From Nitratireductor arenosus (GTDB lineage: Bacteria > Pseudomonadota > Alphaproteobacteria > Rhizobiales > Rhizobiaceae), in assembly GCF_009742725.1 (NCBI RefSeq), contig NZ_WPHG01000002.1, positions 620,001 through 684,000 on the forward strand: 64,000 nucleotides of DNA, given 5' to 3'. Below the pieces are notes generated by a model. It was not told where the DNA came from and did no database searches. It saw nothing but the letters and a program-made list of their open reading frames with translations. The translations under genes and the position numbers were made by a program. Shown piece after piece: positions 18,384 to 38,468 of this stretch; the stretch's first letter is position 1, and each line of letters starts with the position of its first letter.

Positions 18384-18992
18384 ATGAAGGGTGGCAGATA
18401 TGTCGGGCGCATCATCGCGGGCTTCGGGCTGGTTCTCGTGGCCGGTTGTACCTCGGTGTCGAGCAACTATACCGGCGAGATCACCAAGACCACCACGAAG
18501 CGACTTTACGTCTGCCACGGCTACAATTGTTCCTACAAGACCAGACTGACCCTCACCGAACGCGACGGCGAAACCTTCGGCAAGATGTTCTCCTATGCCG
18601 AAACGGCGGCGGATGAACGCGGCGCGATCTCGCAGGCGGTGCAGTATTTCGAGGATCGGGCCGGTGGCGTTATCGGCGTGCGCGACAGGGCGAAATCGAA
18701 TCTCGCCGGCTCCCGGGTCAGGGGCCAGATGGATTGCATCGACGAATCGACCAATACCCGTTCGCTGCTGCTTTATCTGCAGGAGCGCGGCCTGTTGAAG
18801 CATCATACAGTCGAGTGGAATCGCTCGCGCGGGCTTTTCGTCGATGGTCGCTATCCGCATTCGACCGCCATGCTCCGCGAGCGTGGCGGGACGTTGTGGG
18901 CCGTCGACAGCTGGTTCGAGCCGATGGGTGGTGCACCCGACATCATGCTTTACAGCGAATGGCGCTCGCGCGGAGTGATGGGCGAGCGTTGA
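18384..18992 (+). CDS. Hypothetical lipoprotein
   Basis: A 202-residue protein with a basic N-terminus, hydrophobic stretch and lipobox VAGC, so probably a lipoprotein. The mature part has paired cysteines (VCHGYNC and MDCIDES), and the C-terminal half (HHTVEWNRSRG, TLWAVDSWFEPMGGAPDI) resembles conserved hypothetical proteins of Hyphomicrobiales. I do not assign a function. It is divergent from trmFO and ends about 90 bases before a strong hairpin. Confidence 0.75.
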   Translation: MKGGRYVGRIIAGFGLVLVAGCTSVSSNYTGEITKTTTKRLYVCHGYNCSYKTRLTLTERDGETFGKMFSYAETAADERGAISQAVQYFEDRAGGVIGVRDRAKSNLAGSRVRGQMDCIDESTNTRSLLLYLQERGLLKHHTVEWNRSRGLFVDGRYPHSTAMLRERGGTLWAVDSWFEPMGGAPDIMLYSEWRSRGVMGER

Positions 18993-19080
18993 TCGCGCGT
19001 TTGCGCTGCGAAACCACGTCGAACCGGATCTGGATATTTGGGAAGTGGGGCGCGGGCGGACATGCGGGCGCAAAAAAACA

Positions 19081-19187
19081 ACACCCGCCGGGGGAGGAGG
19101 TCCGGCGGGTGTCGTTTTGGCGGCCGGCATCCGGGAGGAGGTGAATGCCGGCCTTATCCGACAGGACCTGGGAGGAGGATGGTCCTG
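19081..19187 (-). ncRNA. Triple-hairpin array with CCUCCUCCC loops, Cuckoo/CcsR-like
   Basis: Three perfect hairpins lie just downstream of the DUF1127 gene on the minus strand. In transcript order they are 19162-19187 (7 bp), 19122-19153 (9 bp) and 19081-19112 (11 bp). All loops carry CCTCCTCCC on the minus strand, an anti-Shine-Dalgarno motif. The last hairpin is followed on the minus strand by TGTTTTTTTG and so also ends the transcript. The same organisation, a DUF1127 gene (CcaF1) followed by tandem small RNAs (CcsR1-4) with C/U-rich loops, is known in Rhodobacter sphaeroides and defines the Cuckoo RNA family. Expression here is inferred. Confidence 0.8.
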
Positions 19188-19206
19188 GCGAAATTCGTGT
19201 TAGGTG

Positions 19207-19347
19207 CTAGATCGAGCGGCGGGCGACGAACGGGATGTCGCCGCGGCTGATGCCCAGATCGTTGAGTTCGCGGTTCGAAAGGCGGCTCAGCTCGTTGACG
19301 GTTTCCCGGTAGCGGCGCCAGTTGCGGTAGTTGCGGATCAGGTTCAT
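19207..19347 (-). CDS. DUF1127 small protein, CcaF1-like
   Basis: A 46-residue basic protein, MNLIRNYRNWRRYRETVNEL then LSRLSNRELNDLGISRGDIP, which is the DUF1127 signature (YjiS-like). Small DUF1127 proteins of alphaproteobacteria act in RNA binding, phosphate and carbon metabolism and stress responses; CcaF1 of Rhodobacter is an RNA-binding protein that helps small-RNA maturation. The in-frame extension to 19452 is dropped because the family starts at this Met. The stop is 20 bases before the first CCUCCUCCC hairpin. Confidence 0.9.
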   Translation of the reverse strand: MNLIRNYRNWRRYRETVNELSRLSNRELNDLGISRGDIPFVARRSI

Positions 19348-19635
19348 GGTCGTGTCTCTTTTCGTAAATCTTCGTTTCGGCTGTTCTCGTTGACAATTGG
19401 AAGATAGGTGTGTCTCCGGCGGATTTGAAGCGCATATATTGCATAGCAGCAATGCGTTTTGTGCAGCGCAACATCAGCAGGCTGTCACATAAAGATCGCA
19501 ATCCGGTTCGCGCCATGTCGGGGGGCGGCCGGGGTCGTATATTGCGGCGCAGCGATCTGGGGAAACCGGCTTCTATTCCCTGTCGCCAAAACCGCTAGGA
19601 TAAGAGCGATTCCGGCCGACACATCGCGAGCAACC

Positions 19636-38331: not shown

Positions 38332-38468
38332 GAAAAGCGTCTCCCGTAGTTCCCCTCCACGGAGGAACGAGTTGAACGGACCACGGCCTTTTCAGGGATT
38401 GCGGGAACGAAATTCCGAAACTGCCCGAAAATGGCATCGTGTTTTCCGTTGCGCCAAGACCGTTCGTC

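What the first reader, a model, noticed from the sequence alone, without database searches (positions are those of the whole stretch)
19081..19347. DUF1127 gene followed by three tandem CCUCCUCCC-loop hairpins (Cuckoo/CcsR-like RNA array)
Directly seen: three perfect stems of 7, 9 and 11 bp in a row downstream of a 46-residue DUF1127 gene on the minus strand. Every loop shows CCTCCTCCC, complementary to Shine-Dalgarno sequences, and the last stem ends in a T7 run. The stems have unrelated sequences while the loops are conserved, which argues for selection on the loop. Rhodobacter sphaeroides CcaF1-CcsR1-4 has the same architecture and is stress-induced; here three hairpins lie in one compact 107-bp block in a different order. 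It could be one multi-hairpin sponge or three processed RNAs.
Basis: partly seen in the sequence, partly recalled or inferred. Interest (0 to 1): 0.85.

Follow-up and report, generated by a model that had tools for sequence, protein, structure and literature searches.

The report
DUF1127 gene with ar14 small RNA
A tiny protein gene is followed by a three-hairpin small RNA that very likely blocks translation of nutrient-uptake genes; it belongs to an RNA family already known in rhizobia and their relatives, and its promoter suggests which stress regulator switches it on.

Summary
The three CCUCCUCCC-loop hairpins behind a 46-aa DUF1127 gene are a full-length member of Rfam RF02344 (ar14, the family of S. 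meliloti NfeR1): 102.2 bits, cut-off 58.8. CcsR1 stays below its cut-off (39.7 against 65.3). DUF1127 plus CcsR-like RNA is already named (CIN1 locus, cuckoo RNAs): a new member of a known kind. Added here: (1) an LsrB/VtlR-type box upstream, present in relaxed form in 31 of 37 DUF1127-array operons (expected 0.9%), though also before 37 of 94 DUF1127 genes without an array; (2) a trxB–LysR–AbcR locus in the same genome; (3) 12 chosen stand-alone arrays have the box 85–91 nt before their first loop with no room for a DUF1127 gene, suggesting NfeR1-type RNAs arose by loss of that gene; (4) genes whose ribosome-binding site complements the loop are rich in transporter binding proteins (6 of 13, against 0 of 20 scanned controls). 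One RNA that silences many mRNAs is likelier than a sponge or three RNAs. Expression, binding and processing are untested; RpoH control is not excluded.

The parts
19443..19465 (-). Composite LsrB/VtlR-type operator TGCACAAAACGCATTGCTGCTAT: TGCA-N6-GCAT (19465-19452) overlapping GCAT-N3-TG-N3-T (19455-19443)
   Evidence: 2 exact matches in the 4.8-Mb genome, this one and one inside a long open frame; relaxed box in 31 of 37 DUF1127-array operons; composite in 21 of 37 and 0 in 783 kb of background (the same 112 loci less the stretches upstream of DUF1127 stops and loops). Consensus forms from PMC10746234, PMC8844928, PMC7486931 (passages). Binding untested.
19402..19430 (-). Putative core promoter CTTCAA-N16-CCTATCT (also readable as CTTCAA-N17-CTATCT); predicted start about 19395
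   Evidence: RpoH1 consensus 11 of 13; sigma70 9 of 12; box to TAT of the -10 is 58-59 nt in 27 of 28 readable operons. Start site inferred, not mapped.
19207..19347 (-). DUF1127 small protein gene, 46 aa, Arg-rich (10 R, 0 K)
   Evidence: Pfam PF06568 E 1e-18; R and K counted; against 3 congeners 23 synonymous and 6 non-synonymous codon differences in all
19188..19206 (-). 19-nt linker between the DUF1127 stop and hairpin 1 with conserved AATTTCG; candidate RNase E processing site
   Evidence: Seen in alignment A1; cleavage is inference from R. sphaeroides (PMC8625941, passages)
19076..19196 (-). ar14 small RNA (Rfam RF02344), full length, model positions 1-123
   Evidence: 102.2 bits, gathering score 58.8, E 8e-20
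19162..19187 (-). Hairpin 1, loop CCUCCUCCC at 19178-19170
   Evidence: 7 of 7 pairs show changes on both sides in 32 aligned units, 80.3% of cells paired
19122..19153 (-). Hairpin 2, loop CCUCCUCCC at 19141-19133
   Evidence: only 50-60% of cells paired in the loose alignment and not called by RNAalifold
19075..19118 (-). Hairpin 3 plus U7 (19078-19072): aSD loop (19100-19092) and intrinsic terminator in one
   Evidence: 98.3% of cells paired, 9 of 11 pairs with changes on both sides

Best explanation
This is a dicistronic stress/metabolism operon: a 46-aa DUF1127 protein and, in the same transcript, an ar14-family (NfeR1-type) trans-acting small RNA. Transcription starts near 19395, activated by the LysR-type regulator LsrB/VtlR bound at 19443-19465 (inferred from sequence). 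The transcript is cut in the short linker after the DUF1127 stop, probably by RNase E (inferred), releasing one RNA of about 120 nt that ends at the third hairpin, which also serves as terminator. Its three identical CCUCCUCCC loops pair with GGGAGGAGG-type ribosome-binding sites and block translation of a set of mRNAs, above all those of periplasmic substrate-binding proteins of transporters (shown for NfeR1 in print; predicted here). The DUF1127 protein may help processing, as CcaF1 does in R. sphaeroides (inferred).
For: ar14 full-length match. ar14 in 4 of 4 genomes of the genus, in 116 of 121 sampled genomes of the family, 108 above the cut-off, and in 0 of 14 control genomes. Covariation 0.410 against 0.177 in shuffles, 0 of 500 as high. 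Relaxed box in 31 of 37 operons against an expected 0.9%. Box to -10 spacing 58-59 nt in 27 of 28 readable operons. A LysR gene directly after trxB and followed by AbcR (ar15) in the same genome, PDB 9hh1 E 2e-137. RBS-complement genes: 6 of 13 substrate-binding proteins against 0 of 20 scanned controls, p 0.0015; in congeners 8 of 18 scanned. Literature (passages): LsrB activates NfeR1 (PMC10746234); VtlR directly activates atu1667, orthologous to BAB1_0914 and BAB2_0512 (PMC7486931; DUF1127 per PMC12595884); DUF1127-CcsR association called the CIN1 locus (PMC10253847).
Against: No transcript data. The core promoter also matches the S. meliloti RpoH1 consensus (11 of 13; 2 of about 64,000 positions on this strand score that high), so RpoH control is not excluded. 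6 of 37 operons lack the relaxed box, among them the genome's own second copy, and 16 of 37 lack the composite; in a congener whose LsrB is 98% identical the TGCA half has one mismatch (L142). The box is not special to arrays: 37 of 94 DUF1127 genes with no array behind them have it too, and only 27 of 70 array clusters without DUF1127 do. Target prediction is by complementarity only, and the control RBS was picked after the target list had been seen and gave shorter genes. For DUF1127 proteins a protein-binding role (PhoR) is in print (PMC12501420, passages).
Confidence: 0.75

Rival explanations
1. Same RNA, but driven mainly by a heat-shock-type sigma factor (RpoH), as ccaF1-CcsR1-4 in R. 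sphaeroides; the LTTR box is secondary or inactive.
For: CTTCAA-N16-CCTATCT matches the S. meliloti RpoH1 consensus at 11 of 13 positions, tied best on this strand of the window; of 31 promoters (this one included) 4 reach 11 and 7 reach 10. R. sphaeroides precedent (PMC10253847, passages).
Against: Across relatives the -35 is weakly conserved while the LsrB-type box and its distance to the -10 are strongly conserved, the pattern expected of an activator-dependent promoter.
Confidence: 0.2
2. The hairpins are only the 3' end of the DUF1127 mRNA: a strong terminator and stability element, with no action in trans.
For: Hairpin 3 plus U7 is a good intrinsic terminator, and the array follows the stop codon by 19 nt.
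Against: A terminator needs neither three hairpins nor identical 9-nt loops. In relatives such units also occur without DUF1127, with a promoter-like sequence of their own, and NfeR1 acts in trans with redundant aSD loops (PMC10746234, introduction).
Confidence: 0.05
3. Protein or RNA sponge: the C-rich loops titrate a regulator (an RNA-binding protein, Rho or free RNA ends) instead of silencing particular mRNAs.
For: Several identical loops per unit and up to nine per locus in Mesorhizobium jarvisii and Pseudaminobacter.
Against: Genes with a complementary RBS are not random but rich in transporter binding proteins, as published NfeR1 targets are.
Confidence: 0.06
4. A negative feedback loop in which the RNA silences lsrB, its own activator (compatible with the best explanation, as an addition to it).
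For: lsrB has GGGAGGAGG at its RBS, a 9 of 9 complement of the loop, in this genome and two congeners.
Against: Not in the third congener nor in the 23 other lsrB genes of the family whose start my script could read, out of 29 others fetched; at most a trait of this lineage.
Confidence: 0.2

Closest known systems
ar14 sRNA family (Rfam RF02344), founding member NfeR1 of Sinorhizobium meliloti
   Same: Full-length covariance match; three hairpins, each with CCUCCUCCC; LsrB-type box TGCA-N6-GCAT upstream; family present in 116 of 121 sampled genomes of the taxonomic family
   Different: NfeR1 is described with its own sigma70 promoter as a stand-alone RNA; here the RNA follows a DUF1127 gene and most likely shares its promoter
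ccaF1-CcsR1-4 of Rhodobacter sphaeroides (Rfam RF02791 CcsR1)
   Same: DUF1127 gene first, CCUCCUCCC-loop RNAs after it, terminator at the end; likely processing from one transcript
   Different: CcsR1 model 39.7 bits, below its 65.3 cut-off; four RNAs there, one three-hairpin unit here; RpoHI/RpoHII promoter there, LsrB/VtlR-type box here
Cuckoo RNA family / CIN1 locus (Reinkensmeier and Giegerich 2015; paper not held, known through a passage of PMC10253847)
   Same: Association of a short DUF1127 protein with CcsR-like RNAs, often found in alphaproteobacteria
   Different: Nothing found that sets it apart
VtlR/LsrB-activated DUF1127 genes (Brucella BAB1_0914 and others; Agrobacterium atu1667)
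   Same: DUF1127 gene with a GCAT-N3-TG-N3-T box upstream
   Different: The passages I read treat the product as a small protein and do not mention a hairpin RNA downstream; whether those very genes have one was not tested

Membership tests
ar14 (RF02344) | Covariance score above the curated gathering score, full model | tested here: met
   102.2 against 58.8 bits, positions 1-123
ar14 (RF02344) | Three hairpins with CCUCCUCCC unpaired in each loop and variable stems | tested here: met
   stem 3 is less variable than stems 1 and 2
ar14 (RF02344) | Expressed as an independent small RNA that silences mRNAs through its aSD loops | not testable with these tools
   No expression data; complementary targets predicted only
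CcsR1 (RF02791) | Covariance score above the curated gathering score | tested here: not met
   39.7 against 65.3 bits
CIN1 locus / cuckoo RNA | Short DUF1127 gene associated with CCUCCUCCC-hairpin RNA(s) | tested here: met
   definition taken from PMC10253847 (passage)
LsrB/VtlR regulon | GCAT-N3-TG-N3-T and TGCA-N6-GCAT box upstream, with a conserved place relative to the promoter | tested here: met
LsrB/VtlR regulon | Regulator present in the genome (LysR gene in an operon with trxB) | tested here: met
   trxB-lsrB operon from PMC11975290 (passage). No reference LsrB was compared other than PDB 9hh1, which the call names only 'LysR family'.
LsrB/VtlR regulon | Direct binding and activation | not testable with these tools
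   needs EMSA and reporter assays
NtrC-repressed NfeR1 promoter | TGC-N11-GCA upstream of the LsrB box | tested here: not met
   no match in the 304 nt upstream of the DUF1127 start

The most novel reading that the evidence does not exclude
The DUF1127-ar14 operon is the older form, and stand-alone NfeR1-type RNAs of Rhizobium/Sinorhizobium arose when the protein gene between a conserved LsrB promoter and the RNA was lost, so that the transcription start came to lie where the operon's RNA is now cut out by processing. If so, published phenotypes of LsrB/VtlR-controlled DUF1127 genes may partly be those of an unnoticed small RNA in the same transcript.
Probability: 0.45. Interest if true: 0.6.

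Novelty: new member of a known kind. Interest (0 to 1): 0.35.

Why it matters
It joins two literatures that hardly meet in the searches made: LsrB/VtlR-activated DUF1127 small proteins and CCUCCUCCC small RNAs (LsrB with CcsR: 0 papers; DUF1127 with trmFO: 0 papers; of the 4 papers one, PMC8844928, holds both VtlR and NfeR1). It gives a concrete case of how an mRNA 3'-end RNA may become an independent regulator, and a simple caution for knock-outs of such DUF1127 genes: the RNA behind the gene may be removed with it.

Tried and rejected
Conserved feedback on lsrB: the perfect RBS complement is in 3 of 4 genomes of the genus but in none of the 23 other lsrB genes that the script could read among the 30 loci fetched (24 read, own included); kept only as a lineage-specific idea.

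CcsR membership: rejected on the Rfam score. 6C RNA, ar7 and the other matches are below their gathering scores and overlap the ar14 match; rejected.

NtrC control as in S. meliloti: no TGC-N11-GCA in the 304 nt upstream of the gene.

Number of CCTCCTCCC sites: the motif is not enriched in the whole genome (27 sites against 49 for the reversed control pattern).

First counting of the box used each DUF1127 stop on its own and gave 22 of 37; one search takes the first gene of tandem DUF1127 pairs (Mesorhizobium and kin) and gives 31 of 37. Both are told. The 37 operons come from 112 loci, are not independent of each other, and include the window, its second copy, one locus counted twice (L076), one with a single loop (L108) and one mixed arrangement (L064, two loops before and one after the DUF1127 frame). 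DUF1127 frames in these loci were called with a profile built here from a regular expression, not with Pfam. One search also shows the box before 37 of 94 DUF1127 frames without an array behind them (some of these are the first genes of the tandem pairs) and in 27 of 70 array clusters without DUF1127 before them.

Loci were found through the exact loop motif, TrmFO or the Rfam model, so loop invariance in alignment A1 (32 units chosen by me, mostly with three exact loops) is partly by selection. A look with less of that selection, the third hairpin of the 29 of 117 units with only two exact loops, shows TCCTCCC or CTCCTCC kept in 24 of 29 by my reading.

Dropped rows: of the 16 target rows, L130 (same site as L129), L127 (28 codons) and L134 (opposite strand of the array itself) were left out, leaving 13, of which 12 were scanned against Pfam (lsrB was examined). 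Of 28 control sites 20 were scanned; 8 with frames of 2-80 aa were not. Of 100 congener sites 30 were fetched and 18 scanned.

Full report
What is there. On the minus strand, a 46-aa DUF1127 gene (19347-19207; Pfam E 1e-18) is followed after 19 nt by three hairpins whose loops all hold CCUCCUCCC, the last running into U7. The fold is far stronger than shuffles (z -7.9, 0 of 200). The DUF1127 frame behaves as a gene: compared with three congeners, 23 codon differences are silent and 6 change a residue. The genome has 6 DUF1127 matches; the two best stand right before its two ar14 copies.

What family. Rfam names it: ar14, RF02344, 102.2 bits over the full model, cut-off 58.8. CcsR1 scores 39.7, under its cut-off of 65.3. 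ar14 is found in 116 of 121 sampled genomes of the same family, 108 above the cut-off, and in 0 of 14 control genomes, and in 4 of 4 genomes of the genus. The second copy of this genome (C12; 69.6 bits) has a changed third loop.

Is the structure under selection? In 32 aligned units 27 of 29 pairs show changes on both sides, covariation 0.410 against 0.177 for shuffles (0 of 500 as high) and 0.04-0.23 for slid versions. Hairpins 1 and 3 carry this (80% and 98% of cells paired); hairpin 2 is paired in only 50-60% of cells, as its stem aligns loosely. RNAalifold on the same alignment keeps hairpins 1 and 3, with 17 of 22 pairs changed on both sides, and does not call hairpin 2, although single genomes form it well. 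Stem 3 is conserved in sequence, stems 1 and 2 are not. The best-scoring unit of each of the 4 genomes of the genus keeps 3 of 3 loops.

Neighbourhood. In named genomes, arrays of this kind lie upstream of trmFO. Of 81 TrmFO rows (window included), 28 have DUF1127 followed by at least one loop, 14 an array with no DUF1127 directly before it, 24 DUF1127 only, 13 neither, 2 are cut by contig ends. DUF1127-first is seen among others in Mesorhizobium, Aminobacter, Phyllobacterium, Brucella, Aurantimonas and Oricola. All 14 array-alone rows lie within one fork of 24 rows (Rhizobium, Sinorhizobium, Shinella and kin; support 98/82). Beside that fork stand Pararhizobium haloflavum (L064, a mixed arrangement; its fork has support 83/36 only) and then two Oricola, which are DUF1127-first (fork 90/95). 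The DUF1127-first label is strongly clustered (5 changes against 23.5 in shuffles). The bootstrap had not fully settled and the root is for drawing only, so the direction of change is inference. Units are also multiplied: two or three in a row (6-9 loops) in Mesorhizobium and Pseudaminobacter.

Promoter. Upstream of the DUF1127 gene lies TGCACAAAACGCATTGCTGCTAT (19465-19443). It fits both the LsrB box reported at NfeR1 (TGCA-N6-GCAT; PMC10746234, passages and introduction) and the VtlR/LsrB box GCAT-N3-TG-N3-T (PMC7486931 and PMC8844928, passages). In the 4.8-Mb genome this composite occurs twice, here and once within a long open frame that looks by eye like an ABC-transporter ATPase. In 37 DUF1127-array operons drawn from 112 loci the relaxed box (TGCA-N6-GCA) stands at the expected place in 31 (expected 0.9%), the strict one in 23, the VtlR form in 22, the composite in 21, the last with none in 783 kb of background. 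From box to -10 the distance is 58-59 nt in 27 of the 28 where a -10 could be read (3 of 31 could not). The box is not confined to operons with arrays: 37 of 94 DUF1127 genes with no array behind them have it (some are first genes of tandem pairs). The core promoter here also fits the S. meliloti RpoH1 consensus at 11 of 13 positions, tied best on this strand; across relatives the -35 is only weakly kept. I therefore favour LsrB/VtlR and keep RpoH as a rival.

The regulator is present: an Lrp-type gene, trxB, then a LysR gene that matches PDB 9hh1 at E 2e-137, then AbcR (ar15, 41.9 bits, cut-off 40). That lsrB forms an operon with trxB in Rhizobiales is in PMC11975290 (passage). The call names 9hh1 only as 'LysR family'. 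A LysR of this kind is in 59 of 61 sampled genomes of the family.

Stand-alone arrays show a like promoter. From the array clusters without DUF1127 (27 of 70 have a box somewhere 60-320 nt before the first loop, many of the rest being second or third units of a tandem) I took the 12 loci with a box 85-91 nt before a first loop, too near for a DUF1127 gene between. In 9 of the 12 the script read a -10 at 58-59 nt after the box; L003 was read at 53, L005 and L014 gave none. The start would then fall at the foot of hairpin 1, just where in the window the conserved AATTTCG linker sits. Hence the proposal that the same RNA end is made by transcription in one group and by processing in the other. 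Other stand-alone arrays have the box 115-234 nt before the loop, which this does not explain.

Targets. GGGAGGAG-N4-10-ATG occurs at 15 distinct places (16 rows; 4 for the reversed control). Of the 13 usable genes 6 encode substrate-binding proteins and 8 transport parts; in a control set with another strong RBS (AAAGGAGA) 0 of 20 scanned do (Fisher p 0.0015 and 0.00009). The control RBS was chosen after the first list had been seen, and its genes are shorter. In congeners 8 of 18 scanned are substrate-binding proteins. This fits published NfeR1 targets (periplasmic ABC components; PMC10746234). One of the 13 is lsrB itself, but the site is not conserved outside the genus.

Known or new. The association of DUF1127 with CcsR-like RNAs is in print as the CIN1 locus (PMC10253847, passage; the 2015 cuckoo paper is not held). 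ar14 hairpins, aSD loops and LsrB control of NfeR1 are in print (PMC10746234). VtlR control of DUF1127 genes is in print (PMC7486931, PMC12595884, passages). What I did not find in the searches (listings, with passages of some of the papers) is a paper that puts LsrB/VtlR, DUF1127 and the hairpin RNA together as one operon; absence from this open-access library is weak evidence. Overall: a new member of a known kind, with a testable link between two known regulons.

Noticed in passing
L002 1355-1616 (G000:C12, beside an xseA-like frame, named by eye): Second ar14 copy of the genome, also directly behind a DUF1127 gene; third loop TCCCTCCC, no LsrB-type box, though two congeners have a relaxed box at a like place (L145, L146).
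   Followed up: partly
L121 2482-3645: trxB, an LsrB-type LysR gene and AbcR (ar15) in a row, with GCATGGGTGCGTT before AbcR.
   Followed up: partly
L070 3606-4294 (Aurantimonas): Seven exact CCTCCTCCC loops: six recur every 137-140 nt and one more lies 36 nt after the fourth, a tandem array with a long period.
   Followed up: no
L037 3956-4389 and L043 3321-3714: Three ar14-like units in tandem (nine loops) behind two DUF1127 frames, before trmFO.
   Followed up: no
window 38341-38379 (-): THF-II riboswitch match, 59.4 bits, cut-off 41.
   Followed up: no
window 18384-18989 (+): 202-aa frame with a lipoprotein-like start (LVAGC, judged by eye), between array and trmFO on the other strand; no Pfam or NCBIfam match at E 0.001.
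   Followed up: no
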